Assembly: GCA_029448655.1 (NCBI GenBank)
Contig: JACCLO010000006.1
Location: 1,488,001 to 1,552,000 of the forward strand
Direction of reading: 5' to 3'
From: Wolfiporia cocos
Lineage: Eukaryota; Basidiomycota; Agaricomycetes; Polyporales; Phaeolaceae
DNA length: 64,000 bases
Notes under the pieces: model-generated
The model's database searches: none
Told to the model about the DNA's origin: nothing
The model's input: only the letters and a program-made list of their open reading frames with translations
Shown here: positions 18,813 through 48,822 of the stretch, piece after piece
How the letters are laid out: every line of letters starts with the position of its first letter
Position numbering within the stretch: position 1 is the first letter of the stretch
Translations under genes and position numbers: made by a program

Positions 18813-18886
18813 AACCGCTTTAGCTGAGTGGTTTCAGTCGCTGTTTCACTGAGGTCTCGTGGTTCCTGGTTCGATTCCTGGTTTGC
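18813..18886 (+). other. tRNA-like segment (box A/box B), degenerate
   Basis: Box A TAGCTGAGTGG (18821-18831) and a perfect box B GGTTCGATTCC (18868-18878) are spaced as in a tRNA, and the T-arm can form. The would-be anticodon stem TCAGT/ACTGA encloses 9 nt where a tRNA has 7, and the acceptor ends do not pair. This is therefore a tRNA-derived or pseudo-tRNA sequence. Confidence 0.45.
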
Positions 18887-20824: not shown

Positions 20825-20922
20825 CAGGTATATTGGAAGCAGATGAAGCATATCCCCTTCCGCGATAATTTTAATTCCATCTCCATCGGCAACAGGATAT
20901 GTAGTATGAGTGGGGACTACGA

Positions 20923-22121
20923 TGCGCTGCGTAGGGGTAGCGTAATGCGCCAGGTCCTATGGGCGCAGGAATGTCAGCAATGACTCCCATACAATTCTCA
21001 AGACACTCAGGCAGCTCAGAGACTTCAAGACTGCTCGCTGTTTGCCATGTCTCGGTTTCTCTTCATCGAAATCGTATTCCATCTCGCCTTCGATTCCTCC
21101 CTACTATGAAACTCGCAATTAACCAACGTCTTGTGCTGGACTGCAGCACGGTCGGTGCTTCCTTTACTTCGCTTCTGATTCTGCTCGCAGCCCTTTCTTC
21201 TGCATTCTGCTATAACGTCTCTATACCGATCACAACGCTCTCGAACGAGAGTGTCCTTACTTCAGGTTCAAGCATATCCCTTAGTAGCTTCGTTTCATTT
21301 TTTCCCCTTCAATGGTACGTGTTTGTTCTGTTCTACTGTACTAAGGTCCTTTTCCACCGAAACTACTAGCATTCGAGCTATGACCGGAGGAAACGGAGTA
21401 CCGACACGGCGTAGAGCCCACGACGATCGAGGGCCTGTAACATGTAATCATTTGGCGGCGTTCAAGTCGTTGCGCGTACCGGATGTTACATGTCACACGT
21501 CACACCCAATGGTAGTCTGCCGATGACGTGGTCTCCACCCGGTATATTATTTTGCTTCGCATGGAAGTGTAGCCACTGGGCTTATATAGTAATTCTACTG
21601 CTCGATTGGGTCATACGATCAGTGCCTTGTACTTCTTTGGTAACGGCTTGGGAAGCGCTGTAATCCCATCTTGCGATTCCCGAGTCTTAGCCTGGCCTCT
21701 GAGTCTAATAGCAAGAGGCCGAGTATCTGCTCAATGTGTGAGATTTGATATTCACTACCCACGCAAGTATACGAGCGGTCGCACGCGACCACTCGTATAT
21801 TTGCTGTGGGGTTTTTGTTCGCTATATACCCTGCATGTGGAAATTGCCCAGCAAGGCCTGAGTCTCGATACTAGAGTCGAGGTGACAAACGTTACAAACT
21901 GCCGGTGAGCCTCAACGCTCCAGCCGGCCTATATACTGATGGGATACCCTGTGTCGCCGCAAGCTTGGCCATCCACACGCCATCCGTCCGCCATGGCCGC
22001 GACATCCAGACGCCACCGGCTGCAGACCACAGATTGTGACACTGCACATCCCTCTTTGGTCTCTCGCGCTTACGTTGTCGGCGACCTGCTTTTTCCTGCA
22101 TCCCCGCTCTTCCATTCCACA
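20923..22121 (-). repeat. Solo LTR-like sequence, arm 1 copy
   Basis: This is the mirror of 47514-48724. Read on the minus strand it starts with a TGTGGAATGGAAG-type end and shares with the LTRs of the 14.7-19.8 kb element the blocks around gcaggtcgccgac, gcgcgagagacc and cggcacagccacgtccg. No second LTR or internal coding is present nearby, so it is probably a solo LTR. It predates the palindrome because both arms carry it. Its outer end is degraded in this arm. Confidence 0.55.
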
Positions 22122-23967
22122 GCAACTAGAGCCGGCCTTCGACCTGCGATATGTTGCAATTCGAGGTCCGAAGGTGTGTGGCTCATTGCCACTTTGCACC
22201 CCACTTACGTTCGACTATTCTATACCGGATGTTCGCCCCGGCAGCCACGGAGTTTCCACATGACATCTAGCAATGCCACCTCCTGAAACAAATATGTAGT
22301 CTCTGGCCTCGGAACACGGTAAATAATATGTTCCACACCTAGCCTATATATGTGCGATTGTTGGAGAGTTGTGATACGCATTCATTAATGGATTGAGTGA
22401 CCCAGACATCCCGGTACTGAGTATGACACCATCGCAAGATCATGTGAAGCACTCTAGCGATTGACGGACATTTGTTCAAAATCAGGACTTACTAGAAGTC
22501 CGCGCGACTTAAGTCTGCGACAGAAGTCTTACCAGCGGAAGCGTCGCTCGATTTGAACTTGATAAATTGACCAGATGACGAATTTGACACTTCGCCATGA
22601 TTCAAGGCTTCGAGCCATTTCAAGTGCGCACGCTTGTAGCACCATATATCATGCATGTCTTGAATCGTTATTGACACCTCTGATCTGGTATAATTTTTGT
22701 ACATTAAAGGATCAAAATTATCAAATTCATTGGATCGATCTACTTCGGCTTTCCCAGATCGATTACTGACGAGGAATTGCTGAACCGTGCAGATCGAGCA
22801 AAATGCAGCCGGTAGATTGAGATCATTGACTGAACTTTGCGGTCATGTGAACAACGTGAATTTGGTTAAGTTTGGCTTGGCGAATGTAGCCTGTAGCTAT
22901 GATCCTAGGCCTAGCTCTCTTGCTGTCTCCTTCAAGTTTGGGCACATTCCTGGTGGTCGACGTTTGGTGCCGAGGTCTTCGCTTCGAACTATTGAGGGGT
23001 AGAAGTCAAAAACTGTATGCGTGGACAGAAGCCATCACCTGCGTGTTAGCCGCTGAGAGGTCATTTCCTGCGAGGGATGTGTGCTTAACAAGTCAGTTAC
23101 AAGATTATTGCCAGCAACGAATGCCACCGCACTATTCTGATATTCTCTAAGCTTCGATACGGTGCGCGAACCTTGTTTATCAGCCAATCGGTCTAGAGTC
23201 GACACCGTCAAGCTCTCATCACAGTTCTCTAGATGTCACATGAGCCGATGATACTTGTTCCTTCTTAGCCTCCTTCTCGTGCAGCTGTGGCTCTAACATG
23301 TTCTTTTGTACTGTAATATCCGAGATCTTGGCACACCTGTTTGAGAATCATAATGGCAGGGTGGACTGCTACAAGGGCCTCTGAAGGGCTGTAAGCATGT
23401 CATAACTTTCTTAGAGAATGATTGCCTGATAAGGGGACTCGTAAGGAGTCCCAGCACTCATAACCCAGATCGGAAATTTCCCAAGAGACCCTTCATTCGC
23501 TGATAGAATCGTCATGATCCGCAAGAGAAGACGAGGAGGTGTACGAGGTGTTCCACTGTTCGTCTTCTATTCCTATGTAGAGACTGGTCCGTGGGTTAGG
23601 GTTAGGCTCATGCCACTTCACAGATGGAGAGGAATGGAAGAATGGAAGGATCTGCATACACGGATGTCCTATGACTGTACCATGATACTACCATTGTTGT
23701 CATCAGAATCCAGCCGCTCTACTCACAACTCGATCCAACGTCACCTGGTGTGCAGACCCTGTGGCGAGCGCCGCACTTCACGGGAATTGTACAGTCCTCA
23801 ATAGTGCATACAGCTAGGGGAGAGAACCGTATATAGTACGGTACCCCGAGTGAACTCAGGACCCATCGCCATCCCGCTCGCAGATAGCTGCTGTACACTT
23901 CTCGAGGTGAATCAGTGTCTCATTGTCCCCTCGCGTTCCACTCGCTGAATTCGACTTGTTTGATTAG
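22122..23967. other. Diverged outer-arm sequence without a recognised gene (arm 1)
   Basis: Short frames such as the minus-strand segment at 22492-22704 (ITIQDMHDIWCYKRAHLKWL) are not preserved in arm 2, where a 10-nt insertion changes the frame. The right end, just before 23968, carries the promoter of the decarboxylase gene and diverges quickly from arm 2. A two-unit gggttagggttagg word occurs near 23594. Confidence 0.4.
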
Positions 23968-25305
23968 ATGTCAACCGACGCCGGAATCCCCGCTAATAAG
24001 CTGGTCCCCTACCGCGTGGGCGGCTGGCTTCCGAGAGACCACCGCATTCTCGAGCGATGGCTTGCGAAGCGTATCGCCAAGGTCGAGGAGCGCTGGGGGC
24101 GTGCTGACGAGTCGCTCCACCCGGTAATTCAGGAGTTCCAGGCTCTCATCGAGGGAGACCCTATAATCTACATGGGCTTCCACGAGATGTTCGAGCAAGT
24201 CCCGACGAAGCCCCCGTACAACAACGACCCGACCGGGAAGCCACAGGTGCGTGTTTCAGTTGGACCTCTCCGACTCTGTCTCCGCCTTGAACTGGTGCGT
24301 GTTCATCAGGTCCGAGACTACAAGCTGATGCTCTACCTCTTCGATGAGATCCTGACCGAAGCCCCCGACTACGAGGACAACGCTCTTGTAGGCTTCCCCA
24401 TTAACGCCATCCTCGATTGGCCGATGGGCACCCCCGCAGGATACTCCATGTTCACGAACGAAAAGGTGAACGTCATGTTCAAGAAGATGTTCGACGTCTG
24501 GGTCACCTTCCTCACCTCCTCCGCGTCTTGCTACGTCCTCACCACGGCCGACAACGGCTGGTTTGGCCCCGCCGCGAGCACGGTGATCCCAGACTTTGCC
24601 CAGACGTTCATCTGCGACCCCGACGCGCAGTACTACGGCTTCAAGTCGTGGGACGACTTCTTCGTGCGCCTCTTCCGTCCCGGCGTGCGCCCTATTCAGG
24701 GCCCCGGCGACGAGTTCGTCACGAGCGCGTGCGAGTCGACCATCTACAAGATCGCGAGCAACGTACAGGAGCGCGACAGCTTCTGGCTCAAGGAGCAGCC
24801 GTACTCGCTCGCGGACATGCTTCACTACGACGAGCTTGTCCCGCAGTTCGTCGGCGGCACCGTCTATCAGGCGTTCCTGTCCGCGACCAACTACCACCGC
24901 TGGCACGCCCCCATCACCGGGACCATCGAGAAGGTCGTGAACGTCCCCGGGACGTACTACGCCGAGTCTCCCGCAGTTGGGATGGACCCCGCTGCCCCTG
25001 ACCTCTCGCAGTCGTTCATCACCGCCATGGCTGCCCGCGCGCTCATTTTCATCCGTGCGGACTACGCCCCGATCGGCCTTATGTGCTTCGTCGGCGTCGG
25101 GATGTCTGAAGTCTCGACGTGCGAGGTGACCGTCAGCGTGGGACAGAAAGTTCAGAAGGGCGACGAGATCGGGATGTTCCACTTCGGAGGGTCGACCCAT
25201 TGCCTGATCTTCCGCCCGGAGACGAAGCTCATATTCAACGCAGACTACGACATCGGCAGCAAAGTACTGCTCAACGCTATTGTTGCGGTCGTCGACACCG
25301 CTTGA
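23968..25305 (+). CDS. Phosphatidylserine-decarboxylase-family protein, PsiD/CsTDC-like (arm 1)
   Basis: This is a pyruvoyl-dependent decarboxylase of 424 residues after removal of one intron (24247-24309, 63 nt, GT-AG). The N-terminal region IQEFQALIEGDPIIYMGFHE and the blocks YYGFKSWDDFF, FVTSACEST, NYHRWHAPITGTI, NVPGTYYAESP and EISTCE-like EVSTCEVTVS follow the order seen in basidiomycete PSD-like aromatic amino-acid decarboxylases such as PsiD. The self-cleavage site that creates the pyruvoyl group is FHFGGSTHC, a Gly-Ser-Thr like the LGST of classical PSD. The conserved HRWHAP histidines are present. There is no mitochondrial presequence or membrane anchor, so a soluble enzyme acting on an amino acid is more likely than a phospholipid enzyme; that substrate call is inference. 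Because the intron has 63 nt and no stop, retaining it would add 21 residues in frame. Confidence 0.85.
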   Translation: MSTDAGIPANKLVPYRVGGWLPRDHRILERWLAKRIAKVEERWGRADESLHPVIQEFQALIEGDPIIYMGFHEMFEQVPTKPPYNNDPTGKPQVRVSVGPLRLCLRLELVRVHQVRDYKLMLYLFDEILTEAPDYEDNALVGFPINAILDWPMGTPAGYSMFTNEKVNVMFKKMFDVWVTFLTSSASCYVLTTADNGWFGPAASTVIPDFAQTFICDPDAQYYGFKSWDDFFVRLFRPGVRPIQGPGDEFVTSACESTIYKIASNVQERDSFWLKEQPYSLADMLHYDELVPQFVGGTVYQAFLSATNYHRWHAPITGTIEKVVNVPGTYYAESPAVGMDPAAPDLSQSFITAMAARALIFIRADYAPIGLMCFVGVGMSEVSTCEVTVSVGQKVQKGDEIGMFHFGGSTHCLIFRPETKLIFNADYDIGSKVLLNAIVAVVDTA

Positions 25306-25849
25306 GGCTCGCGTTTGCTCAGTGTAGGCGGTAGGAATTTATCTACGCTCTTGATGTACTTGTATCTGCGCGCCTGTGATTGTGTTGAGACAAGCGTCTG
25401 ATGACTTCCTGCTTAACATGTATTGTCGCTCGAAAACCCGAAATATCATGGATTTGACTCGGCTCTATAGGCGGATATCAGAGCTGACAGGGCTCGTTAC
25501 AAAGCATAGGTAACAGGGCCGTACTGGCTGCGAGCACATCTCTCCAATTAAACCTCTGCCTTGCTGCTCGTAGTGAATACGTCCTGTGCAGCAAAGGCAG
25601 CATGTAATCATAACAAGAAATATGCGCCGGGAAAGTCTAGCTATGCAGTGAATTCTGAGGGGGGCGCTCTCTCTGATGAGAGAGGTTATGGTGCACGGTA
25701 CTGCTGGAGTTAGTTGTCTTGTACCAACTCCGAGCAAGTATTGGTCCGCTGAACGGCTTCGCCCTTCCAGGCGTCACAAAGTGACGTTGATCCCTTCGCG
25801 AAGGCTCAGATCTTTGCCAAGCTGAAAGTTCTGTACTCAAGGGTTTTCC
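25306..25849. other. Spacer between the decarboxylase and the P450 remnant (arm 1)
   Basis: No gene is recognised. The part nearest 25850 may hold decayed 3' P450 sequence, because the P450 frame ends just to its right, but no heme-binding signature could be read. Confidence 0.4.
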
Positions 25850-26490
25850 TTATCCAATCATCCAATCTGTGACTTTGGAGAGTATATTGGATGTCGTGTC
25901 CATGCCCGCAAACAGAAGGGTTCTATGTGACAGCCACTGATCACTACCCGCCACAACCCAGGGTTGAGCCACTCACGACATCTGAGCAATCATCTCTTCC
26001 TCTGATGTAGTCGATCCTTTTCGGACGCTGCTTGATTGGCCCACACTTCGAAGAGAAGCAGTCAGTATCAATCTCGTGATTAGCCATTATGTCGTGATTG
26101 GCTTACTAAGGATGCTCATGATATCTCGATAGATCTTGCCTCAATACAATCCACGATCTCCGTCATCTTCTTCAGCTGGGGCGACGGAAGTAGTTCCACT
26201 ACCCTTCGTTGCAGCCATTTAGGACCAAGGTTCCACACGTACGGTAGCAGTTGAAGTAGCATTGTCAATTGGTAGTACGTCGGTCTGAGAATCAAGAAAG
26301 GAGTCAGTGACGCAGCGCATCGTGTCAGAACAATCACCCACACTACGGCCTTGATTGCGTCGGCATACTCGTCTGGCTTGTCACGTACTAAGGGGTCAAG
26401 GGAACATCCGAGCCCGGCCTGCGCAATTGTTTCCAAGGAGGCACGTCCCATCCAGCTTAACATATCTAATTCGCGTGGGCCGTTGCTCAA
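25850..26490 (-). pseudogene. Cytochrome P450 fragment (arm 1)
   Basis: This is the middle of a fungal P450 monooxygenase. It reads NGPRELDMLSWMGRASLETI, QAGLGCSLDPL, DEYADAIKAV and LLPYVWNLGPKWLQRRVVEL, then after introns a segment matching SEEEMIAQM and the I-helix motif LLFAGMDTTSN. It then stops at WMIG. The N-terminal anchor and proline-rich hinge are missing, as are the ExxR and FxxGxxxCxG heme signatures, so it cannot make an active enzyme. It lies between the decarboxylase and terpene synthase genes and is identical in arm 2 as far as read. Confidence 0.82.
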
Positions 26491-28080
26491 TCTCGCTTGA
26501 CGTCATTCACGCGTGCAAGATGCGTCAAGGCGTCTCTCCTCACCAGGCTCGATTGCGGTCGGATCCACCGTTGCTCTCGAGCTCTTTACTGGAATTTCCC
26601 GGTACAGCTTGGCTCGTAAAGTATCCATACTTCTGACCACATATACAACTCACCAGATCGTCTCACAGCTGTCTTCATATATAATAGCAGTAACGCGCCG
26701 GAGAAAGATGAACGAAATGCCATCTGAGGCGCATGCGCGCCTGTGAGCGGTCGCAGGGGCCACCGCCTTTACCGCTGGTCATCGGTACGCATATTATCTA
26801 AGCGCCTATGTTTTACAGCTTTGGCTGGAGTCTTCTTTTCGAATCACTACTGTGTGCTGCGTTTTCAGTCGGCTGTAATATTCAGCAGCTACTTGCATAC
26901 CTGGTAGATCTAGTGTACCCAAACATGATTCACACCCTATCACTGCAGTCTCTAACACGTCTGGGACACCCGGACCGAGACACCCCCTGGGCCTGCCCCT
27001 TCTGACGTCCAATCATCACGGTCACATCAGCTTCGCGAAGCTGCCTTGCAAATGCCAGCCCCCCGATGTGGCTGTCCGATCCTTGACTTGAGTGCCATCC
27101 TCTTTTTTTTTTTGCTACCGTAGTACCCTTCCCAAAGTTCACCGGCACCCCCAAGCATCGTGAATGCGTCTGTGCCGAAGACTCCCAAAGCCAGATCTCG
27201 TGATCTCCTGCGCCATACTTATCTCTATGGAAGGTCGTTTCCCACATTCGGTAGCTCGTCACGTATCGCGCACGCCAAACCCCCTGCTGTAAAGATAGGT
27301 TTGTGTCAGACAGAATGGCGTTGCATGTCCACTACCTCATTGTGTGAAACAGGGACAAAGCAGTCGCGCACACGGTATACTACGAGCGAGCGAGAAGATT
27401 TGTAATCGTCGGATGGCCATCGGCCTTTCCATATTATCAAACTGTGTCATATCTCTTCCTCTGTCCACCGTGCTCTCGGCTTCCCAGTGTCCCACCAGTA
27501 GCATCCACGGTAGGCGTCCAAAGTGTGCTTCTCCTTTGACGCGTGGTTTGAAAATTAACCCTTGTCAGCTACAGGGATTCTGAGAGTATGAGAGGCAGGA
27601 CAATAAGCTTTATGACAATATGGTATTCAATATTCACCGCCGTCCGGCTTGAGGCGTGCGGTCACTGCAGTGGCATGTACTGACCTCAGCGCACCATCCA
27701 TAGCTCGCACAATCAACAATCAGCACGTTATAGCTTTCGAGCATGCTGGCATAAGTGTATTGAGTAATGAATGCACGTTTTCCCTGCGCAAAAGTCCGGA
27801 CTGGACCGGACCTCGCGATATCGTTGGCGCTCATCCACCACCCTCCGTTCTCTATCAGGTAGATTGCAGTCATGTTGGGACACGAGAGCTATAGCTAGGA
27901 TGGCATATACTATCTCAAGCAAGAAGATTACCCAAAGTGAGCTCGTTCCTGAGCTACTGGTGGAACGCTTGGTACGGCTAGTGGAACTCACCGATGCCAA
28001 ATAAAAATGTGTAGCTATGAGTATAAAGCCGGTAAAATTCCAGTCGTTGCGAGGCTCATTCGATATCTCTGCCCCTGGAA
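26491..28080. other. Unassigned region between the P450 fragment and terpene synthase (arm 1)
   Basis: Several minus-strand segments look exon-like but could not be joined or recognised. One starts near 28000 with a hydrophobic helix (LWVIFLLEIVYAILAIAL). Another lies at 27640-27873 (ENGGWWMSANDIARSGP) and a third at about 26930-27262 (RMWETTFHRDKYGAGDHEIW). The bases just before 28081 are the terpene synthase promoter. The same sequence is mirrored at 41535-43124 with very few changes, one of which alters V to A in an overlapping frame. Confidence 0.3.
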
Positions 28081-29373
28081 ATGTCGAAGCCTCAGCAGGA
28101 CGAGATTTATCTTCCTGATACTATGGCCAAGTGGCCCTGGCCAAGACGCATCAGTCCCTTGTACCAGGAGATGAAGGCGGAGTCTGATATCTGGCTCAAA
28201 AGCTTCAGACCTTTTACAAGCGAGTCGCAGAGCATCTTCGATTCGTGTGATTTCGGTTGGTAGTTCATGATTGTTGTCTTGATCACGAAATACTGAGCTC
28301 TCGCTATTGCATGTAGGCTTGCTTGCGGGGCTTGCGTATCCGTGGGCTTCCAGAGGTTAACTTTATAAGCTTAGATTTTTGCTCTGCGGCTTGACGATTC
28401 CGTCTAGAGCATCTGCGTACAGCATGCGATCTAATGAACGTACTCTTCGTCTTGGATGAGTACACAGATGTTGAGAGCGCACCGGGCGTTCGTGAGATTG
28501 CGGACATAGTATTGGATGCTCTTCAGAATCCATCCAAGCGCCGACAAGAAGGAGAGATTCTGCTCGGCGAAATGGCAAGACAGTGCGTTGAGTCAATCTC
28601 GTGGTTTTCTTAAATGTTGCTGAGGATACATGCCATGCTCACGAGCAGATTCTGGGAAAGAGCAATTCAAACTGTAACTGTGAGCTCGCAGAAGCATTTC
28701 ATCGAAGCATTCACAAGTTACCTGGATGGTGTGGTCGCACATGCCGTTGTTCGCGGAAATGGTACTGTTCAAACCTTCGACGAGTATCTGAAGATCCGAA
28801 GAGAGGACGTGGGCGTCAGGGTGACCTATGGCCCCTTCGAATTTGGTCTGAACATCCCGGATGAAGTGTTTTACCACCCCATCATCGTTGAGATGTCCGA
28901 ATGCGGGGTCGATCTAACCATCATCGATAATGTATTTGGTTCCGCTTCGTGTGGGGATCTCTCACTCACTATGACGATTGCTCCAGGACATCGCGTCTTA
29001 CAACAAAGAGCAGGCTGCCGGTGATGATGGCTTCAATTCGCTGACCATCATCATGCGTCAGCTGGATGTTGACTTGGCCAGCGCAATCGATTGGGTTGTG
29101 GACTACCATGCTCAAGTTCAGGCGCGATTTCTGAGCGCTTTCAGAAGGGTACCCTCATTTGGAGGCGAGGTCGACAGGGATGTCGAGCAGTACGTCCTGG
29201 GTATAGCAAATTGGATTCGGTCCAACCATTGCTGGAGCTTTGAAGGCGGCCGCTATTTTGGAAGGAAGGGATTAGAGATCCAGAGTACCAGACGTGTCCC
29301 TTTGCTACCGAAAGCGAAACACGACCGCACCCTAAAGAGGCAGCAGGTAATTATACCTGCCGTGGATATATAG
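28081..29373 (+). CDS. Sesquiterpene synthase (class I terpene cyclase), arm 1
   Basis: Cytosolic enzyme expected to ionise and cyclise farnesyl diphosphate. Five exons (28081-28255, 28317-28355, 28408-28582, 28649-28931, 28987-29373) splice cleanly into 352 codons plus stop. The aspartate-rich Mg-binding motif is DEYTD at residues 88-92 (after LMNVLFVL). The second metal site (NSE type) is NDIASYNKE at residues 224-232, created across the last intron. Near the C-terminus an Arg-Tyr pair (GGRYF) matches the diphosphate-sensing pair of fungal sesquiterpene synthases. DEYTD-type motifs and this length fit basidiomycete enzymes including the protoilludene-synthase clade; the exact product cannot be read from the sequence. 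The gene is complete and shows no disabling change. The neighbouring P450 is broken, so any oxidation of the product would need enzymes elsewhere. Confidence 0.9.
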
Positions 29374-29923
29374 AGGGTATTGATTAGATAGCTGGGTAGA
29401 ATGGAGCACCCATGTATACATGAGTTGCGGCTCTTTTCTTCCTCTGTCTCGGTTCGGGCCTCTTGTAGACTGTCTCGGTCGAAATAGGATATAAACACAA
29501 CGTGGAAAACATAATGTCTTACATATTGAAGGGCAGATCCGGAGACGCTGCTGAATGGGGAGCCTTCCTTGAAGTCGGAAAATAAGGCACGATGGCGAGT
29601 AGCGTTTGGAACGGTTATCGGCATGTCCTGAAAGACGTCTGCGCCCAGCGGATGATCCGATATGAGTGGCAACGACAGCATGGCAGTGGCAGGGCCATTA
29701 TTACTTGGTCGCTTCATTCCGTGTTGTCAGGGGAAGGAGCGAGGCTTGAGCGTCGTACCTGGGTGGTGAACTGGGACACAACACTCGAGGTAGTGCGGGG
29801 ATGAGGCTGCAATTCATGGATATGTACGGAGCCACATCCTAGTCCTCGGACTCGAGGTCGGGCGTAATTGACACAAATGCCGTTGACGCCGAGGAAATCA
29901 TTGATTAATGTCATTGTAGGCAT
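29332..29923 (-). CDS. Possible small intron-containing gene, unknown function (arm 1)
   Basis: A minus-strand start at 29923 (MPTMTLINDFLGVNGICVNY) can be spliced over two GT-AG introns to a segment DVFQDMPITVPNATRHRALF and then DFKEGSPFSSVSGSALQY. The likely 3' end overlaps the terpene synthase 3' end on the other strand. No domain was recognised and the third exon is uncertain, so this may be a gene remnant. It is identical in the mirror copy. Confidence 0.3.
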
Positions 29924-30403
29924 GTGGCATCAAGTATTAGACATGTCTCTCTCTGATTCGATTTCCTTTACTGACATAGATTGTAAGTTCGCTTGCATTG
30001 GCGTTGCCGCCTAGCAACACATATCGGAAGTAGGCACGCGGACGCGTAGTTAGTCTAGTCACCCATAGGTAGACTAGCAGTATGCGTACATCGGGAATTA
30101 GACTATCGACACCAAGCGTCCGATGGCCGAAACTGGCTTCGCTTGAGGAGACGGCTTGTCCTTCCTGAAGTGAAGGTAATTCCTATCGGTTATAATATCT
30201 ACAATTGTTTGTATATTGAGGTCAATGGTTAGCACATTGCAATCCTCATCGTATTACTTGTGATTCGCTTCTGAAGTCAGACAAGAGATCGTACTATACA
30301 TGTCAATAGCGCTGTCGAGCGACGCGGGGACGGTTCATCCACACAGGCAGATCAACATATAGATAATCACACGTGCAAAACGGGTACTCTGAAACGCTAG
30401 CTG
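29924..30403. other. Arm 1 spacer, no gene recognised
   Basis: A/T-rich stretch between the possible small gene and the dispersed repeat. It contains an inverted pair tagtctagtcacc / taggtagacta near 30051-30075. Nothing else is supported. Confidence 0.35.
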
Positions 30404-30812
30404 GGCCAGTGGCCCGTCGTCGGCTCACACTTTAGCGCACGTTAGTTTCCCCGTCCGTACGCGTCCAGAGAATCGGCCAGCGCACGGACGGGTACTTATC
30501 CCGAGGGCCACGCAAAGGCCTGCGCCAGGACCGTATAATACGGCCCTTACCTCGGGGTCACCTGGCCACCCTCTCCAGCGTCCAGGGTGGCCAGGCGGAC
30601 GCAAGAACCCGGGAACGAATGACGAGTTGCTTACCACCGGCGCCCAATCTTCCAGCACCGATGGCTCGTCGACACGTTCACGGACCCTTGCGCCGTCCAA
30701 CCAAGCAGCCTTGACTCTGCACAGGGTCTATTCCCTGAGGATGGACAACTGCATCAGACGCGCGACGTCAGTCTTCCGCAAGGATCAGACGAGACGCGAG
30801 ACGGCAGAACAC
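30404..30812 (+). repeat. Dispersed GC-rich repeat, internal copy of arm 1
   Basis: Homologous to 20433-20824 with small indels. Here it continues beyond the agacggcagaacac word into cacaaagccgcc, whereas the outer copy switches there to palindrome-arm sequence. Confidence 0.75.
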
Positions 30813-30854
30813 TCACAAAGCCGCCGCATCGCACGTGCAGTCGCTGGAGCCGTT

Positions 30855-38760: not shown

Positions 38761-38802
38761 AACGGCTCCAGCGACTGCACGTGCGATGCGGCGGCTTTGT
38801 GA

Positions 38803-39211
38803 GTGTTCTGCCGTCTCGCGTCTCGTCTGATCCTTGCGGAAGACTGACGTCGCGCGTCTGATGCAGTTGTCCATCCTCAGGGAATAGACCCTGTGCAGAG
38901 TCAAGGCTGCTTGGTTGGACGGCGCAAGGGTCCGTGAACGTGTCGACGAGCCATCGGTGCTGGAAGATTGGGCGCCGGTGGTAAGCAACTCGTCATTCGT
39001 TCCCGGGTTCTTGCGTCCGCCTGGCCACCCTGGACGCTGGAGAGGGTGGCCAGGTGACCCCGAGGTAAGGGCCGTATTATACGGTCCTGGCGCAGGCCTT
39101 TGCGTGGCCCTCGGGATAAGTACCCGTCCGTGCGCTGGCCGATTCTCTGGACGCGTACGGACGGGGAAACTAACGTGCGCTAAAGTGTGAGCCGACGACG
39201 GGCCACTGGCC
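38803..39211 (-). repeat. Dispersed GC-rich repeat, internal copy of arm 2
   Basis: Mirror of 30404-30812 and homologous to the palindrome-edge copy 20433-20824. No matching copy was found outside the outer edge of arm 2 (48823 onward). Confidence 0.75.
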
Positions 39212-39691
39212 CAGCTAGCGTTTCAGAGTACCCGTTTTGCACGTGTGATTATCTATATGTTGATCTGCCTGTGTGGATGAACCGTCCCCGCGTCGCTCGA
39301 CAGCGCTATTGACATGTATAGTACGATCTCTTGTCTGACTTCAGAAGCGAATCACAAGTAATACGATGAGGATTGCAATGTGCTAACCATTGACCTCAAT
39401 ATACAAACAATTGTAGATATTATAACCGATAGGAATTACCTTCACTTCAGGAAGGACAAGCCGTCTCCTCAAGCGAAGCCAGTTTCGGCCATCGGACGCT
39501 TGGTGTCGATAGTCTAATTCCCGATGTACGCATACTGCTAGTCTACCTATGGGTGACTAGACTAACTACGCGTCCGCGTGCCTACTTCCGATATGTGTTG
39601 CTAGGCGGCAACGCCAATGCAAGCGAACTTACAATCTATGTCAGTAAAGGAAATCGAATCAGAGAGAGACATGTCTAATACTTGATGCCAC
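39212..39691. other. Arm 2 spacer, no gene recognised
   Basis: Mirror of 29924-30403; nothing supported beyond the arm homology. Confidence 0.35.
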
Positions 39692-40283
39692 ATGCCTACA
39701 ATGACATTAATCAATGATTTCCTCGGCGTCAACGGCATTTGTGTCAATTACGCCCGACCTCGAGTCCGAGGACTAGGATGTGGCTCCGTACATATCCATG
39801 AATTGCAGCCTCATCCCCGCACTACCTCGAGTGTTGTGTCCCAGTTCACCACCCAGGTACGACGCTCAAGCCTCGCTCCTTCCCCTGACAACACGGAATG
39901 AAGCGACCAAGTAATAATGGCCCTGCCACTGCCATGCTGTCGTTGCCACTCATATCGGATCATCCGCTGGGCGCAGACGTCTTTCAGGACATGCCGATAA
40001 CCGTTCCAAACGCTACTCGCCATCGTGCCTTATTTTCCGACTTCAAGGAAGGCTCCCCATTCAGCAGCGTCTCCGGATCTGCCCTTCAATATGTAAGACA
40101 TTATGTTTTCCACGTTGTGTTTATATCCTATTTCGACCGAGACAGTCTACAAGAGGCCCGAACCGAGACAGAGGAAGAAAAGAGCCGCAACTCATGTATA
40201 CATGGGTGCTCCATTCTACCCAGCTATCTAATCAATACCCTCTATATATCCACGGCAGGTATAATTACCTGCTGCCTCTTTAG
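39692..40283 (+). CDS. Possible small intron-containing gene, unknown function (arm 2)
   Basis: Mirror of 29332-29923. Start MPTMTLIND at 39692. Candidate introns run from about 39857 to 39980 and from about 40092 to 40146. The last exon overlaps the terpene synthase 3' end, which is convergent. No domain is recognised. Confidence 0.3.
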
Positions 40284-41534
40284 GGTGCGGTCGTGTTTCG
40301 CTTTCGGTAGCAAAGGGACACGTCTGGTACTCTGGATCTCTAATCCCTTCCTTCCAAAATAGCGGCCGCCTTCAAAGCTCCAGCAATGGTTGGACCGAAT
40401 CCAATTTGCTATACCCAGGACGTACTGCTCGACATCCCTGTCGACCTCGCCTCCAAATGAGGGTACCCTTCTGAAAGCGCTCAGAAATCGCGCCTGAACT
40501 TGAGCATGGTAGTCCACAACCCAATCGATTGCGCTGGCCAAGTCAACATCCAGCTGACGCATGATGATGGTCAGCGAATTGAAGCCATCATCACCGGCAG
40601 CCTGCTCTTTGTTGTAAGACGCGATGTCCTGGAGCAATCGTCATAGTGAGTGAGAGATCCCCACACGAAGCGGAACCAAATACATTATCGATGATGGTTA
40701 GATCGACCCCGCATTCGGACATCTCAACGATGATGGGGTGGTAAAACACTTCATCCGGGATGTTCAGACCAAATTCGAAGGGGCCATAGGTCACCCTGAC
40801 GCCCACGTCCTCTCTTCGGATCTTCAGATACTCGTCGAAGGTTTGAACAGTACCATTTCCGCGAACAACGGCATGTGCGACCACACCATCCAGGTAACTT
40901 GTGAATGCTTCGATGAAATGCTTCTGCGAGCTCACAGTTACAGTTTGAATTGCTCTTTCCCAGAATCTGCTCGTGAGCATGGCATGTATCCTCAGCAACA
41001 TTTAAGAAAACCACGAGATTGACTCAACGCACTGTCTTGCCATTTCGCCGAGCAGAATCTCTCCTTCTTGTCGGCGCTTGGATGGATTCTGAAGAGCATC
41101 CAATACTATGTCCGCAATCTCACGAACGCCCGGTGCGCTCTCAACATCTGTGTACTCATCCAAGACGAAGAGTACGTTCATTAGATCGCATGCTGTACGC
41201 AGATGCTCTAGACGGAATCGTCAAGCCGCAGAGCAAAAATCTAAGCTTATAAAGTTAACCTCTGGAAGCCCACGGATACGCAAGCCCCGCAAGCAAGCCT
41301 ACATGCAATAGCGAGAGCTCAGTATTTCGTGATCAAGACAACAATCATGAACTACCAACCGAAATCACACGAATCGAAGATGCTCTGCGACTCGCTTGTA
41401 AAAGGTCTGAAGCTTTTGAGCCAGATATCAGACTCCGCCTTCATCTCCTGGTACAAGGGACTGATGCGTCTTGGCCAGGGCCACTTGGCCATAGTATCAG
41501 GAAGATAAATCTCGTCCTGCTGAGGCTTCGACAT
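40242..41534 (-). CDS. Sesquiterpene synthase (class I terpene cyclase), arm 2
   Basis: Mirror copy of the gene at 28081-29373, with the same five exons, 352 codons, DEYTD (residues 88-92) and NDIASYNKE (224-232) motifs. I found no coding difference between the copies. Both are complete, so the locus appears to carry two working doses of one enzyme, transcribed in opposite directions. Product and pathway limits are as for arm 1. Confidence 0.9.
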
Positions 41535-43124
41535 TTCCAGGGGCAGAGATATCGAATGAGCCTCGCAACGACTGGAATTTTACCGGCTTTATACTCATAG
41601 CTACACATTTTTATTTGGCATCGGTGAGTTCCACTAGCCGTACCAAGCGTTCCACCAGTAGCTCAGGAACGAGCTCACTTTGGGTAATCTTCTTGCTTGA
41701 GATAGTATATGCCATCCTAGCTATAGCTCTCGTGTCCCAACATGACTGCAATCTACCTGATAGAGAACGGAGGGTGGTGGATGAGCGCCAACGATATCGC
41801 GAGGTCCGGTCCAGTCCGGACTTTTGCGCAGGGAAAACGTGCATTCATTACTCAATGCACTTATGCCAGCATGCTCGAAAGCTATAACGTGCTGATTGTT
41901 GATTGTGCGAGCTATGGATGGTGCGCTGAGGTCAGTACATGCCACTGCAGTGACCGCACGCCTCAAGCCGGACGGCGGTGAATATTGAATACCATATTGT
42001 CATAAAGCTTATTGTCCTGCCTCTCATACTCTCAGAATCCCTGTAGCTGACAAGGGTTAATTTTCAAACCACGCGTCAAAGGAGAAGCACACTTTGGACG
42101 CCTACCGTGGATGCTACTGGTGGGACACTGGGAAGCCGAGAGCACGGTGGACAGAGGAAGAGATATGACACAGTTTGATAATATGGAAAGGCCGATGGCC
42201 ATCCGACGATTACAAATCTTCTCGCTCGCTCGTAGTATACCGTGTGCGCGACTGCTTTGTCCCTGTTTCACACAATGAGGTAGTGGACATGCAACGCCAT
42301 TCTGTCTGACACAAACCTATCTTTACAGCAGGGGGTTTGGCGTGCGCGATACGTGACGAGCTACCGAATGTGGGAAACGACCTTCCATAGAGATAAGTAT
42401 GGCGCAGGAGATCACGAGATCTGGCTTTGGGAGTCTTCGGCACAGACGCATTCACGATGCTTGGGGGTGCCGGTGAACTTTGGGAAGGGTACTACGGTAG
42501 CAAAAAAAAAAAGAGGATGGCACTCAAGTCAAGGATCGGACAGCCACATCGGGGGGCTGGCATTTGCAAGGCAGCTTCGCGAAGCTGATGTGACCGTGAT
42601 GATTGGACGTCAGAAGGGGCAGGCCCAGGGGGTGTCTCGGTCCGGGTGTCCCAGACGTGTTAGAGACTGCAGTGATAGGGTGTGAATCATGTTTGGGTAC
42701 ACTAGATCTACCAGGTATGCAAGTAGCTGCTGAATATTACAGCCGACTGAAAACGCAGCACACAGTAGTGATTCGAAAAGAAGACTCCAGCCAAAGCTGT
42801 AAAACATAGGCGCTTAGATAATATGCGTACCGATGACCAGCGGTAAAGGCGGTGGCCCCTGCGACCGCTCACAGGCGCGCATGCGCCTCAGATGGCATTT
42901 CGTTCATCTTTCTCCGGCGCGTTACTGCTATTATATATGAAGACAGCTGTGAGACGATCTGGTGAGTTGTATATGTGGTCAGAAGTATGGATACTTTACG
43001 AGCCAAGCTGTACCGGGAAATTCCAGTAAAGAGCTCGAGAGCAACGGTGGATCCGACCGCAATCGAGCCTGGTGAGGAGAGACGCCTTGACGCATCTTGC
43101 ACGCGTGAATGACGTCAAGCGAGA
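41535..43124. other. Unassigned region between terpene synthase and the P450 fragment (arm 2)
   Basis: Mirror of 26491-28080. Plus-strand exon-like segments start at 41615 (hydrophobic helix), 41742 and 42353. A run of eleven A lies at about 42501-42511. No domain is recognised. Confidence 0.3.
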
Positions 43125-43765
43125 TTGAGCAACGGCCCACGCGAATTAGATATGTTAAGCTGGATGGGACGTGCCTCCTTGGAAACAATTGCGCAGGCCG
43201 GGCTCGGATGTTCCCTTGACCCCTTAGTACGTGACAAGCCAGACGAGTATGCCGACGCAATCAAGGCCGTAGTGTGGGTGATTGTTCTGACACGATGCGC
43301 TGCGTCACTGACTCCTTTCTTGATTCTCAGACCGACGTACTACCAATTGACAATGCTACTTCAACTGCTACCGTACGTGTGGAACCTTGGTCCTAAATGG
43401 CTGCAACGAAGGGTAGTGGAACTACTTCCGTCGCCCCAGCTGAAGAAGATGACGGAGATCGTGGATTGTATTGAGGCAAGATCTATCGAGATATCATGAG
43501 CATCCTTAGTAAGCCAATCACGACATAATGGCTAATCACGAGATTGATACTGACTGCTTCTCTTCGAAGTGTGGGCCAATCAAGCAGCGTCCGAAAAGGA
43601 TCGACTACATCAGAGGAAGAGATGATTGCTCAGATGTCGTGAGTGGCTCAACCCTGGGTTGTGGCGGGTAGTGATCAGTGGCTGTCACATAGAACCCTTC
43701 TGTTTGCGGGCATGGACACGACATCCAATATACTCTCCAAAGTCACAGATTGGATGATTGGATAA
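43125..43765 (+). pseudogene. Cytochrome P450 fragment (arm 2)
   Basis: Mirror of 25850-26490. It retains the helix C-to-I portion (LSWMGRASLETIAQAGLG ... LLFAGMDTTSN) and ends at a TAA at 43763-43765. The N-terminal anchor, the ExxR motif and the heme-binding cysteine region are absent, so it is non-functional. Confidence 0.82.
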
Positions 43766-44309
43766 GGAAAACCCTTGAGTACAGAACTTTCAGCTTGGCA
43801 AAGATCTGAGCCTTCGCGAAGGGATCAACGTCACTTTGTGACGCCTGGAAGGGCGAAGCCGTTCAGCGGACCAATACTTGCTCGGAGTTGGTACAAGACA
43901 ACTAACTCCAGCAGTACCGTGCACCATAACCTCTCTCATCAGAGAGAGCGCCCCCCTCAGAATTCACTGCATAGCTAGACTTTCCCGGCGCATATTTCTT
44001 GTTATGATTACATGCTGCCTTTGCTGCACAGGACGTATTCACTACGAGCAGCAAGGCAGAGGTTTAATTGGAGAGATGTGCTCGCAGCCAGTACGGCCCT
44101 GTTACCTATGCTTTGTAACGAGCCCTGTCAGCTCTGATATCCGCCTATAGAGCCGAGTCAAATCCATGATATTTCGGGTTTTCGAGCGACAATACATGTT
44201 AAGCAGGAAGTCATCAGACGCTTGTCTCAACACAATCACAGGCGCGCAGATACAAGTACATCAAGAGCGTAGATAAATTCCTACCGCCTACACTGAGCAA
44301 ACGCGAGCC
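43766..44309. other. Spacer between the P450 remnant and the decarboxylase (arm 2)
   Basis: Mirror of 25306-25849. It may contain decayed P450 3' sequence; no gene is supported. Confidence 0.4.
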
Positions 44310-45650
44310 TCAAGCGGTGTCGACGACCGCAACAATAGCGTTGAGCAGTACTTTGCTGCCGATGTCGTAGTCTGCGTTGAATATGAGCTTCGTCTCCGGG
44401 CGGAAGATCAGGCAATGGGTCGACCCTCCGAAGTGGAACATCCCGATCTCGTCGCCCTTCTGAACTTTCTGTCCCACGCTGACGGTCACCTCGCACGTCG
44501 AGACTTCAGACATCCCGACGCCGACGAAGCACATAAGGCCGATCGGGGCGTAGTCCGCACGGATGAAAATGAGCGCGCGGGCAGCCATGGCGGTGATGAA
44601 CGACTGCGAGAGGTCAGGGGCAGCGGGGTCCATCCCAACTGCGGGAGACTCGGCGTAGTACGTCCCGGGGACGTTCACGACCTTCTCGATGGTCCCGGTG
44701 ATGGGGGCGTGCCAGCGGTGGTAGTTGGTCGCGGACAGGAACGCCTGATAGACGGTGCCGCCGACGAACTGCGGGACAAGCTCGTCGTAGTGAAGCATGT
44801 CCGCGAGCGAGTACGGCTGCTCCTTGAGCCAGAAGCTGTCGCGCTCCTGTACGTTGCTCGCGATCTTGTAGATGGTCGACTCGCACGCGCTCGTGACGAA
44901 CTCGTCGCCGGGGCCCTGAATAGGGCGCACGCCTGGACGGAAGAGGCGCACGAAGAAGTCGTCCCACGACTTGAAGCCGTAGTACTGCGCGTCGGGGTCG
45001 CAGATGAACGTCTGGGCAAAGTCCGGGATCACCGTGCTCGCGGCGGGGCCGAACCAGCCGTTGTCGGCCGTGGTGAGGACGTAGCAGGACGCGGAGGAGG
45101 TGAGGAAGGTGACCCAGACGTCGAACATCTTCTTGAACATGACGTTCACCTTTTCGTTCGTGAACATGGAGTATCCTGCGGGGGTGCCCATCGGCCAATC
45201 GAGGATGGCGTTAATGGGGAAGCCTACAAGAGCGTTGTCCTCGTAGTCGGGGGCTTCGGTCAGGATCTCATCGAAGAGGAAGAGCATCAGCTTGTAGTCT
45301 CGGACCTGATGAACACACATCAGTTCAAGGCGGAGACAGACGAGTCGGAGAGGCCCAACTGAAACACGCACCTGTGGCTTCCCGGTCGGGTCGTTGTTGT
45401 ACGGGGGCTTCGTCGGGACTTGCTCGAACATCTCGTGGAAGCCCATGTAGATTATAGGGTCTCCCTCGATGAGAGCCTGGAACTCCTGAATCACCGGGTG
45501 GAGCGACTCGTCAGCACGCCCCCAGCGCTCCTCGACCTTGGCGATACGCTTCGCAAGCCATCGCTCGAGAATGCGGTGGTCTCTCGGAAGCCAGCCGCCC
45601 ACGCGGTAGGGGACCAGCTTATTAGCGGGGATTCCGGCGTCGGTTGACAT
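44310..45650 (-). CDS. Phosphatidylserine-decarboxylase-family protein, PsiD/CsTDC-like (arm 2)
   Basis: Arm 2 copy of the decarboxylase, 424 residues after removal of a 66-nt intron (45306-45371; 63 nt in arm 1). The self-cleavage motif FHFGGSTHC and the HRWHAP histidines are intact. Against arm 1 I see one amino-acid change (LMLFLFDE for LMLYLFDE), several silent changes (for example in the codons for VIQ, GWFG, VIPD and RPG), and a cluster of differences inside the intron. This is the outermost gene of the nearly identical zone, and differences increase towards its 5' end. The intron again has no stop and a length divisible by three. Likely activity as for arm 1. Confidence 0.85.
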   Translation of the reverse strand: MSTDAGIPANKLVPYRVGGWLPRDHRILERWLAKRIAKVEERWGRADESLHPVIQEFQALIEGDPIIYMGFHEMFEQVPTKPPYNNDPTGKPQVRVSVGPLRLVCLRLELMCVHQVRDYKLMLFLFDEILTEAPDYEDNALVGFPINAILDWPMGTPAGYSMFTNEKVNVMFKKMFDVWVTFLTSSASCYVLTTADNGWFGPAASTVIPDFAQTFICDPDAQYYGFKSWDDFFVRLFRPGVRPIQGPGDEFVTSACESTIYKIASNVQERDSFWLKEQPYSLADMLHYDELVPQFVGGTVYQAFLSATNYHRWHAPITGTIEKVVNVPGTYYAESPAVGMDPAAPDLSQSFITAMAARALIFIRADYAPIGLMCFVGVGMSEVSTCEVTVSVGQKVQKGDEIGMFHFGGSTHCLIFRPETKLIFNADYDIGSKVLLNAIVAVVDTA

Positions 45651-47513
45651 CTAATCAAACAAGTCGAATTCAGCGAGTGGAACGCGAGGGGACAATGAGA
45701 CACTGATTCACCTCGAGAAGTGTACAGCAGCTATCTGTGAGCGGGATGGCGATGGGTCCTGCCAGTGAGTTCACTCAGAATACCGTACTATATACTGTTC
45801 GCTTGGGCGTTCTCATAGCTATATGCACTACTGAGAGCTTGTACAAACCCCGAGCTGGATGTGTCGTGAAGTGCGGCGCTCACCACAGGGTCTAGCGAGT
45901 AGAGTGGCTGGATTCTGATGGCAACAATGCTAGCATCATGCTGCGGTCATAGGACATCCGTGTATGCAGATCCTTCCATTCTTCCATTCCTCTCCAACTA
46001 TGAAGTGGCATGAGCTTAACCCTAACCTACGGATCAGTCTCTACATAGGAATAGAAGACGAACCGTGGACAACCTCGTACACCAATAGCCGCGCCAGCCT
46101 GTAGCTCATCGTCTTCTCTTGCGGGTCATATCGATGCTATCAGCGCTCTTGGGAAGTTTCCAATCTGGGTTATGAGCGCTGAGACTCCTTATGAGTCCCC
46201 TTATCAGGCAATTACATCATGAGGTTTCTCTGAGATTATAACATGCTTACAGCCCTTCAGAGGCCCTTGTAGTCCACCCTGCCATTACAAAAACAGGTGT
46301 GTCAAGATCTCGGATATTACTGTACAAAAGAACATGTTAGAGCCACAACTGCACGAGAAGGAGACTTAGAAGGAACAAGTATTACTATTAGTTCATGTGA
46401 CGTCTAAGGAACTGTAATGAGAACTTGACGGTGTCGACTCTAGACCGATGGGCTGATTCTCGCACCTTATTGAAGCATAGAGAACATCAGAACAGTGCGG
46501 AGGCATTCGTTGCTTGCGATAGTCTTGTTACTGACTCGTTAAGCACACATCCCTCGCAGGAAATGACCTCTCAGCGGCTAACACGCAGATGGTAGCTTCT
46601 GTCCACGTATACAGTTTTTGACATCTACCCCTCAATAGTTCGAAGCGAAGACCTCGGCACCAAACGTCGACCACTAGTGGTACCAGGAATGTGCCCAAAC
46701 TTTAAGGAGACATCAAGAGAGCTAGGCCTAGGATCATAGCTACAGGCTACATTCGCCAAGCCAAACTTAACCAAATTCACGTTGTTCACATGCTCGCAAT
46801 GATCTCAATCTACCGGCTGCATTTTGCTCGATCTGCACGGTTCAGCAATTCCTCGTCAGTAACTGATCTGGATAGCCGAAGTAGATTGATCCAATGAATT
46901 TGATAAATTTGATCCTATAATGTACAAAAATTATACCAGATCAGAGGTGTCAATAACGATTCAAGACATGCATGATATATGGTGCTACAAGCGTGCGCAC
47001 TTGAAATGGCTCGAAGCCTTGAATCATGACGAAGTGTCTCTCAGCCGTAAATTCGTCATCTGGTCAATTTATCAAGTTCAAATCGAGCGACGATTCCGCT
47101 GGTAAGACTTCTGTCGCAGACTTTAAGTCGCGCGGACTTCTAGTAAGTCCTGATTTTGAACAAATGTCCGTCAATCGCTAGAGTGCTTCACATGATCTTG
47201 CGATGGTGTCATACTCAGTACCGGGATGTCTGGGTCACTCAATCCATTAATGAATGCGTATCACAACTCTCCAACAATCGCACATATATAGGCTAGGTGT
47301 GGAACATATTATTTTCCGTGTTCCGAGGCCAGAGACTACATATTTGTTTCAGGAGGAGGCATTGCTAGATGTCATGTGGAAACTCCGTGGCTGCCGGGGC
47401 GAACATCCGGTATAGAATAGTCGAACGTAAGTGGGGTGCAAAGTGGCAATGAGCCACACACCTTCGGACCTCGAATTGCAACATATCGCAGGTCGAAGGC
47501 CGGCTCTAGTTGC
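45651..47513. other. Diverged outer-arm sequence without a recognised gene (arm 2)
   Basis: Mirror of 22122-23967 with many substitutions and indels, including a 10-nt insertion near 47040 that changes the frame of the only longer open segment. No gene is supported. Confidence 0.4.
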
Positions 47514-48724
47514 TGTGGAATGGAAGAGCGGGGATGCAGGAAAAAGCAGGTCGCCGACAACGTAAGCGCGAGAGACCAAAGAGGGATGTGCAGTGTCACA
47601 ATCTGTGGTCTGCAGCCGGTGGCGTCTGGATGTCGCGGCCATGGCGGACGGATGGCGTGTGGATGGCCAAGCTTGCGGCGACACAGGGTATCCCATCAGT
47701 ATATAGGCCGGCTGGAGCGTTAAGGCTCACCGGCAGTTTGTAACGCTTGTCACCTCGACTCTAGTATCGAAACTCATTTGCTGGGCGATTTCCACATGCA
47801 GGGTATATAGCGAACAAAAACCTCACAACAAATATACGAGTGGCTGCGTGCGACCGCTCGTATACTTGCGTGGGTAGTGAATATCTTACACATTGAGCAG
47901 ATACTCGGTCTCTTGCTATTAGACTCAAAGGGCAGGCTAAGACTCGGGAATCGCAAGGGGGAAGACGGGATTAAAGCGCTTCCCAAGCCGTTACCTATCT
48001 CATACTATAGGAGGGACAAGTTGAAGAGACAACCGGAAGAAGAAATGGATCAACTTGAAGAAGAAGAAGGCAATGATCATATGACCCAATCGAGTAGTAG
48101 AATTACTATATAAGCCCAGTGGCTACACTTCCATGTGAAGTAAAATAATATCCCAGCATCGGCACAGCCACGTCCGTTGTACCGTTGGGTGTGACATGTG
48201 ACGTCCGCTATTCTCGCTGCTCTCGAGCGCGTGACGTCGATCTGGATCGTCGTGGGCTCTACGTCGCGTCGGTACTCCGTTTCCTCCGGTCATAGCCTCG
48301 AATGCTAGTAGTTTCGGTGGGAAAGGACCTTAGTATAGTAGAACAGAACAAACACGTACCATTGAAGGGAAAAAATGAAATGAAGCTACTAAGGGATATG
48401 CAACGGACACCCTCGTTCGAGAGCGTTACGATCGGTATCGAGACGTCATAGAAGAAAGGGCTGCGAGCAGAAATCAGAAGCGAAGTAAAGGAAACACGGA
48501 CAGTGCTGCAGTCCAGCGCAAGACGTCGGTCGATTGCGAGTTTCATAGTAGGGAGGAATTGAAGGCGAGATGGAATACGATTTCGATGAAGAGAAACCGA
48601 CACATGGCAAACAGTGAGCAGTCTTGAAGTTTCTGAGCTGCTTGAGTGTCTTGAGAATTGTATGGGAGTTATTGCTGACATTCCTGCGCCCATAAGACAT
48701 GGCGCGTTACGCTGCCCCTCCACA
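47514..48724 (+). repeat. Solo LTR-like sequence, arm 2 copy
   Basis: Starts TGTGGAATGGAAG and ends CCTCCACA, the same end types as the LTRs at 14678-15450 and 18252-19840. It shares their blocks (gcaggtcgccgac, gcgcgagagacc, cggcacagccacgtccg, cttagtatagta). It has no internal region or partner LTR. A strong hairpin (tatacgag...ctcgtata) lies at about 47832-47866. No clear target-site duplication was found. Confidence 0.6.
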
Positions 48725-48822
48725 TCGTAGTCCCCCCTCATACCACATATCCTGTTGCCGATGGAGATGGAATTCAAATTATTGCAGAAGGGGGTATGCT
48801 TCATCTGCTTCCAATATACCTG

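What the first reader, a model, noticed from the sequence alone, without database searches (positions are those of the whole stretch)
20825..48822. 28-kb palindrome with near-identical inner arms and diverged outer arms
Seen directly: features in 23.97-34.03 kb and 35.59-45.65 kb pair with coordinates summing to 69615, while the sum drifts to 69647 at the outer ends and substitutions and indels rise outward from the decarboxylase 5' end. A fresh duplication or an assembly fold-back would give uniform identity. The step in divergence is better explained by an old inverted duplication whose inner 10 kb has been re-homogenised by arm-to-arm gene conversion, as in mammalian Y palindromes. Two joined haplotypes are another possibility.
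Basis: partly seen in the sequence, partly recalled or inferred. Interest (0 to 1): 0.9.

Follow-up and report, generated by a model that had tools for sequence, protein, structure and literature searches.

The report
Mushroom palindrome with self-copying arms
A mushroom chromosome carries a 28,000-base mirror-image repeat whose inner arms are 99.99% identical while more than half of its outer parts differ by 8-10%, and a second copy of the same mirror on that chromosome, with its own matching arms, indicates that the arms have likely been overwriting each other, as on mammalian Y chromosomes but here about two million bases from the nearest mating-type gene found.

Summary
The palindrome is in the sequence: arms 20825-34030 and 35585-48822, spacer 34031-35584. 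Arm-to-arm divergence is a mosaic: 1 substitution in 9349 bp (inner), 1.1% (23881-24681), 8.4%, an island of 0.5% (21914-22663), 9.7% at the outer end. The deciding evidence lies outside the window. A paralogous palindrome about 85 kb away on the same contig (C56:1417660-1423829) has the same arm/spacer junctions and a homologous spacer (12% different). Its inner arms are 99.5% identical to each other but 89.4-89.6% identical to the window's; 119 of 124 variable sites are 'arms agree within a locus, loci differ', none is an old left/right split. That is concerted evolution, most simply arm-to-arm gene conversion in both. Assembly statistics match the published homokaryotic Wolfiporia hoelen SS20, which makes joined haplotypes unlikely. 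The arms carry the only two PsiD-like decarboxylase genes found in the genome and two identical sesquiterpene synthases. Known process, new setting: the paper searches, which saw open papers and partly truncated lists, showed no arm-converting palindrome in a fungus. Conversion is inferred; no reads or second strain were available.

The parts
20825..34030 (+). left arm of the palindrome
   Evidence: self-BLAST and arm alignment
35585..48822 (-). right arm of the palindrome
   Evidence: self-BLAST and arm alignment
34031..35584 (.). 1.55-kb spacer; a homologous spacer (177 of 1476 aligned bases differ) lies at the centre of the second palindrome, C56:1418830-1420380
24682..34030 (+). inner homogenised block, left copy (1 substitution in 9349 bp)
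35585..44933 (-). inner homogenised block, right copy
23881..24681 (+). intermediate block, 1.1% different from the right arm; pairs with 44934-45737
22664..23880 (+). diverged block, 8.4% plus 15 indels; pairs with 45738-46960
21914..22663 (+). near-identical island, 0.5%, likely an older conversion tract; pairs with 46961-47721
20841..21913 (+). outer diverged block, 9.7% plus 13 indels; pairs with about 47722-48806
23968..25305 (+). PsiD-like decarboxylase, left copy (PF12588 and PF02666), with an in-frame 63-nt intron-like insert 24247-24309 absent from the W. cocos protein
44310..45650 (-). PsiD-like decarboxylase, right copy; exons differ from the left copy at 6 bases, 5 of them at third codon positions
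28081..29373 (+). sesquiterpene synthase (PF19086), left copy; open multi-exon models exist, exact splice sites not settled
40242..41534 (-). sesquiterpene synthase, right copy, identical DNA
   Evidence: mirror of 28081-29373
30250..32600 (+). repeat 'U' in the left arm (further copies mostly on C56 at 1.29-1.42 and 1.87 Mb, one on C4); mirror copy 37015-39365
20420..20825 (+). fragment of repeat U abutting the left outer edge; apart from gaps it has 4 mismatches against 30395-30812; marks a rearrangement junction with one shared base

Best explanation
This is a 28-kb palindrome, in what is likely the Wolfiporia hoelen genome, whose inner 9.3-kb arms are 99.99% identical, most likely because arm-to-arm gene conversion has repeatedly overwritten one arm with the other. 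Shown: the structure, the mosaic divergence, and a second palindrome on the same contig with the same centre, in which each palindrome's inner arms agree with each other and not with the other palindrome's. Inferred: the common ancestor of the two loci was already a palindrome; the loci then diverged by 10-12%; since then intrachromosomal homologous repair, in which the arms pair as inverted repeats and one serves as template, has erased arm differences within each locus, over at least 9.3 kb in the window and about 1.2 kb in the second locus. The 0.01%, 0.5%, 1.1% and 8-10% blocks of the window are read as tracts of different age. A likely consequence is that the two copies of the decarboxylase and of the sesquiterpene synthase are kept the same.
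For: Second palindrome C56:1417660-1418829 / spacer / 1420381-1423829: inner arms differ at 6 of 1170 aligned bases; against the window arms at 120-123 of 1155; of 124 variable ungapped sites 119 are arms-agree-within-locus, 0 are shared left/right splits, 5 are private to one arm of locus 2; all 23 gap columns also follow the locus. Arm/spacer junctions coincide on both sides of the spacer and the spacers are homologous, so the palindrome likely predates the locus split. The window's diverged outer blocks differ by 8.4-9.7%, close to the 9.9-12% between loci, while the inner block differs by 0.01%. The near-identical island inside diverged sequence exceeds all 2000 shuffles, and about 300 of its 750 bp match dispersed repeats on other contigs, so selection on a gene is a poor reason at least for that part. 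In the distal segment the window arms and locus 2's right arm are split from locus 2's left arm and an outside copy with support 100/99, which fits overwriting of one window arm.
Against: One assembly was examined; no reads, other strains or sister-species DNA were available. Short-read correction, if used, could have erased a few real differences in the inner arms. A single long repair event could explain the inner 9.3 kb without repeated conversion. GC-biased conversion was not detected: 19 AT->GC against 18 GC->AT changes in the window arm, 13 against 26 in locus 2, Fisher p = 0.16. Outside about 1.2 kb, locus 2's arms are only 81% alike, so homogenisation there is limited. The tree of the inner segment could not be built, as only 3 distinct rows remain.
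Confidence: 0.83

Rival explanations
1. The palindromes arose independently and recently at two already separated paralogous loci, because the same site is prone to fold-back or template switching; the arms are alike because they are young.
For: The spacer carries a ~96-bp element (34707-34802) that is an inverted copy of one in the left arm, a possible template for fold-back. Inner arms within each locus are nearly identical.
Against: Junctions coincide on both sides of the spacer in the two loci. The window's outer blocks differ by 8.4-9.7%, so that inverted duplication is not young. Locus 2's outer arms differ by 19%.
Confidence: 0.08
2. One recent long break-induced replication event copied about 9.3 kb from one arm to the other; there is no continuing arm-to-arm conversion.
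For: The inner block is one continuous tract with 1 difference in 9349 bp. The left outer edge shows a template-switch-like junction to internal repeat U.
Against: Two further blocks of other ages exist in the window (0.5% and 1.1%), and locus 2 was homogenised on its own. This is a form of gene conversion and overlaps with the main reading.
Confidence: 0.2
3. Assembly artefact: fold-back contig or two nuclear haplotypes joined.
For: Near-perfect inner arms are what a fold-back gives; a later paper says that chromosome 1 of the SS20 assembly may be incorrectly assembled (PMC11354754, passages seen).
Against: Two outer blocks differ by 8.4-9.7% with 28 indels, and the flanks beyond both edges do not match each other. 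The assembly matches the homokaryon SS20 in size and longest contig. Mean PacBio read length worked out from the paper's figures is about 14 kb, longer than the 9.35-kb identical block, so each arm could be anchored between spacer and outer arm. A second, diverged palindrome has the same centre.
Confidence: 0.04

Closest known systems
Palindromes of mammalian X and Y chromosomes
   Same: Large inverted repeat with arms over 99% identical kept so by gene conversion (PMC8981503, start of abstract seen in the listings); short spacer and edge divergence are recalled.
   Different: Not near a detected mating-type gene; 13-kb arms; the comparison here is between two loci of one genome, not between species; the genes are metabolic.
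Salix purpurea W-chromosome palindromes (PMC7023750, passages seen)
   Same: Conversion limited to part of the arms; two palindromes related to each other; the test used there (differences between lineages without arm-to-arm variants) is the one met here.
   Different: Sex-linked, spanning 200 kb, compared between species and with read depth.
Divergently oriented pheromone genes of Cryptococcus MAT loci (PMC12510652, passages seen)
   Same: Basidiomycete inverted gene copies for which repair by gene conversion, likened to human Y palindromes, is proposed.
   Different: There proposed with the words 'if confirmed', for single genes inside MAT; here 13-kb arms away from the mating-type genes found, with sequence evidence of conversion.

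Membership tests
Arm-converting palindrome (sex-chromosome type) | two long inverted arms around a short unique spacer | tested here: met
Arm-converting palindrome (sex-chromosome type) | arm identity over 99% | tested here: met
   inner 9.35 kb 99.99%; not met in about 2.2 kb of the outer arm at 8.4-9.7% divergence and in 0.8 kb at 1.1%
Arm-converting palindrome (sex-chromosome type) | differences between lineages shared by both arms | tested here: met
   119 of 124 variable sites, between two paralogous palindromes instead of two species
Arm-converting palindrome (sex-chromosome type) | lies in a sex- or mating-determining region | tested here: not met
   nearest STE3 match on C56 is about 1.98 Mb away (12 of 12 candidates scored), the two homeobox_KN matches are on C3 and C12 (6 of 6 scored); other homeobox and pheromone genes were not searched; so not filed as a sex-chromosome palindrome
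Arm-converting palindrome (sex-chromosome type) | suppressed allelic recombination | not testable with these tools
   needs population or cross data
Assembly fold-back or haplotype join | even arm identity, or alleles of one locus with the same flank | tested here: not met
   (40 of 208 candidates scored)
KDZ transposon (the insertion in palindrome 2) | KDZ transposase domain inside | tested here: met
   PF18758 at C56:1413651-1414455, inside 1396590-1417659; the genome has 129 such matches, so by density about 0.04 would fall in 21 kb by chance
[quoted passage not shown]
   1173-bp TIRs with 1 mismatch and an 8-bp TSD; that KDZ-type elements make 8-bp TSDs is recalled

The most novel reading that the evidence does not exclude
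Fungal autosomes hold families of palindromes that undergo continuing arm-to-arm gene conversion, and such a palindrome keeps two copies of metabolic genes identical, here the genome's only PsiD-like decarboxylases, in the way Y palindromes guard male genes, without any sex linkage.
Probability: 0.35. Interest if true: 0.75.

Novelty: new variant of a known kind. Interest (0 to 1): 0.62.

Why it matters
Arm-to-arm conversion is best known from sex chromosomes and is often explained by the lack of a recombining partner. A case in a basidiomycete, away from the mating-type genes found, beside a second palindrome that serves as an internal clock, makes it testable whether palindrome conversion is a general repair outcome of inverted repeats. 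A fungus with several sequenced homokaryons would allow conversion rate, tract length and direction to be measured directly. It also suggests a way by which duplicated secondary-metabolite genes stay identical.

Tried and rejected
Mating-type linkage: not supported, the STE3 and homeobox_KN matches lie far away or on other contigs. Selection for identical coding sequence as the cause of the identity: rejected for most of the inner block, which has no recognised gene; in the decarboxylase third codon positions differ at 5 of 425, all within the first 217 codons (1.1% block). The idea that the KDZ insertion in palindrome 2 stopped conversion beyond it: not supported, since the arms stay about 97% alike over the 69 bp next to the insertion and then fall to about 80%, and those outer arms differ more (19%) than the two loci do (10%). 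GC-biased conversion: not detected. Rfam at gathering thresholds and tRNA scans of the window: nothing. Pfam on ten other ORFs of arms and spacer: only weak, unconvincing matches. The inner-segment tree failed for lack of distinct rows, and a first sesquiterpene synthase splice search found no model; a wider one gave 48 and 45 open models under two assumptions, so splice sites are not settled. One search oriented some loci wrongly (6787 and 2180 conflicts) and was redone; I use only a group without conflicts. One search, with a 15.6-kb query, did not list the window itself and scored 39 of 141 candidates, so it is not a complete repeat count.

Full report
Where it is. The window is C56:1488001-1552000 of a 64,431,438-base, 76-contig genome. 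The decarboxylase's best database match is Wolfiporia cocos MD-104 SS10, 90% identity over 97% (7999 candidates scored). The published homokaryotic assembly of Wolfiporia hoelen strain SS20 has 64.44 Mb, 78 contigs, a longest contig of 5.29 Mb and a contig N50 of about 3.76 Mb (PMC9503964; passages seen, part 1 of section 4). Among the contigs listed for G000, C1 has 5,289,744 and C56 3,770,006 bases. I infer that the window comes from SS20 or a near-identical version of that assembly. SS20 is reported as a homokaryon.

The structure. Arms 20825-34030 and 35585-48822 flank a 1.55-kb spacer. Divergence between arms is a mosaic: 1 substitution in 9349 bases (24682-34030); 9 in 801 (23881-24681); 97 in 1152 with 15 indels (22664-23880); 4 in 750 with 2 indels (21914-22663); 98 in 1010 with 13 indels (20841-21913). 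The outer block holds an event-free run of 364 columns; the largest in 2000 shuffles was 155. At the left edge the arm abuts a fragment of an internal repeat, 20420-20825, nearly identical apart from gaps to 30395-30812, with one base shared at the join.

The second palindrome. Searching the whole genome with the left arm found related DNA at C56:1417660-1424409 (39 of 141 candidates scored). It is a palindrome with the same centre: 1417660-1418829, spacer 1418830-1420380, right arm 1420381-1423829, about 85 kb from the window's palindrome. The arm/spacer junctions agree on both sides of the spacer and the spacers are homologous (177 of 1476 aligned bases differ). A search with the core 33000-35600 found only these two palindromes, besides short repeats (20 of 20 candidates scored).

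The test. In the inner 1.16 kb the window arms are identical (0 of 1163), the second palindrome's arms differ at 6 of 1170, and the loci differ at 120-123 of 1155. Of 124 variable ungapped sites 119 separate the loci with arms agreeing, none separates left from right in both loci, and 5 are private to one arm of locus 2; all 23 gap columns follow the locus. If the palindrome is older than the split of the loci, as the shared junctions indicate, arms that evolved independently would differ by at least as much as the loci. They do not. The willow palindrome paper uses the same logic between species (PMC7023750, passages seen); here it is applied to paralogous palindromes.

Age and tracts. The window's diverged outer blocks differ by 8.4-9.7%, about as much as the loci differ from each other (9.9-12%). 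So the inverted duplication is old and the identity of the inner block is young. The 0.5% and 1.1% blocks are best read as earlier conversions, though the 1.1% block is coding and may be partly constrained (5 of its 6 exon differences are at third codon positions). About 300 of the 750 bp of the 0.5% island match dispersed repeats on other contigs (40 of 62 candidates scored), which speaks against selection as the cause there. In the distal segment the window arms and locus 2's right arm (90.1% alike) are split from locus 2's left arm (81%) and a further copy at C56:1.873 Mb with support 100/99; the root was drawn at the midpoint. A simple reading is that one window arm was overwritten by the other.

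An insertion in palindrome 2. Its left arm is split by 21,070 bases (1396590-1417659) with 1173-bp terminal inverted repeats (1 mismatch) and an 8-bp target duplication. I guessed a KDZ transposon from these features, from memory; the KDZ domain was then found inside, at 1413651-1414455 (129 matches in the genome, about 0.04 expected in 21 kb by density). The two palindrome 2 arms are 97% alike over the 69 bp beyond the insertion point and then fall to about 80%, so homogenisation there probably preceded the insertion and was short.

Genes. Each arm carries a PsiD-like decarboxylase (PF12588 and PF02666; related to solved L-tryptophan decarboxylases) and a sesquiterpene synthase (PF19086). The genome search finds PF12588 at two places only, both in these arms (2 of 2 candidates scored). 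By my grouping, the 19 PF19086 matches form 12 loci, 8 of them on C56 between 1.446 and 1.891 Mb. The two decarboxylase copies differ at 6 exon bases, 5 at third codon positions, and both are open. What these enzymes make is not known from these calls.

Artefact. A fold-back would give even identity, and a haplotype join would give one flank twice; neither is seen. The flank stretch 50001-53139 gave no second copy (40 of 208 candidates scored). SS20 reads average about 14 kb (21.02 Gb in 1,497,235 reads; my division), longer than the identical block. Short-read correction could have removed a few differences in the inner arms. I could not examine reads.

Literature. Seven searches of openly licensed PubMed Central papers bear on this: 6 of 6 papers listed; 7 of 7; 4 of 4; 10 of 164; 3 of 3; 10 of 50; 3 of 3. 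No title or abstract start in those listings describes an arm-converting palindrome in a fungus. For Cryptococcus pheromone genes such repair is proposed with the words 'if confirmed' (PMC12510652, passages seen). The main text of the SS20 paper has no occurrence of 'palindrom' or 'gene conversion', though a figure plots large duplications. Subscription papers were not searchable. I recall reports of palindromes on Microbotryum mating-type chromosomes; one search did not show them.

Verdict. It works like a Y palindrome; it is not filed as a sex-chromosome palindrome, because the tested location feature is not met.

Noticed in passing
C56:1396590-1417659 (ends in loci L011 and L008): 21-kb KDZ-containing insertion with 1173-bp near-identical TIRs and 8-bp TSD, inserted in the left arm of the second palindrome.
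   Followed up: partly
window 30250-32600; C56 1.29-1.42 and 1.87 Mb; C4 442-443 kb: A diverged repeat family U, found mostly on one contig, of unknown nature.
   Followed up: partly
C56:1445832-1891187: 8 of 12 sesquiterpene synthase loci found in the genome lie in this 445-kb stretch, which also holds U repeats and the window palindrome.
   Followed up: no
window 33579-33674, 34707-34802, 35941-36036: ~95-bp repeat present in the arms and, inverted to the left-arm copy, in the spacer; more copies on C56, C12 and C2.
   Followed up: no
window 26119-26502 (mirror 43113-43496): Looks like a cytochrome P450 fragment by eye (no Pfam match); 85-95% relatives at C56:2446.2-2446.9 and 2516.9-2517.6 kb, which lie in an inverted 2.9-kb pair about 70 kb apart.
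   Followed up: partly
window 18314-18991: MITE-like element with 57-bp inverted ends; 94% copy near C56:1.872 Mb.
   Followed up: no
window 17606-18245: Dispersed repeat, 94-96% copies on C4 and C3.
   Followed up: no
window 58226-59305 and 62406-63882: Direct duplication at 81-85% that includes a methyltransferase ORF.
   Followed up: no
window 8307-9054 and 13365-14125: Short diverged inverted repeats, pieces at about 76-91%.
   Followed up: no
window from about 53140 to at least 54000: Part of a multicopy element with copies on other contigs (40 of 208 candidates scored).
   Followed up: no
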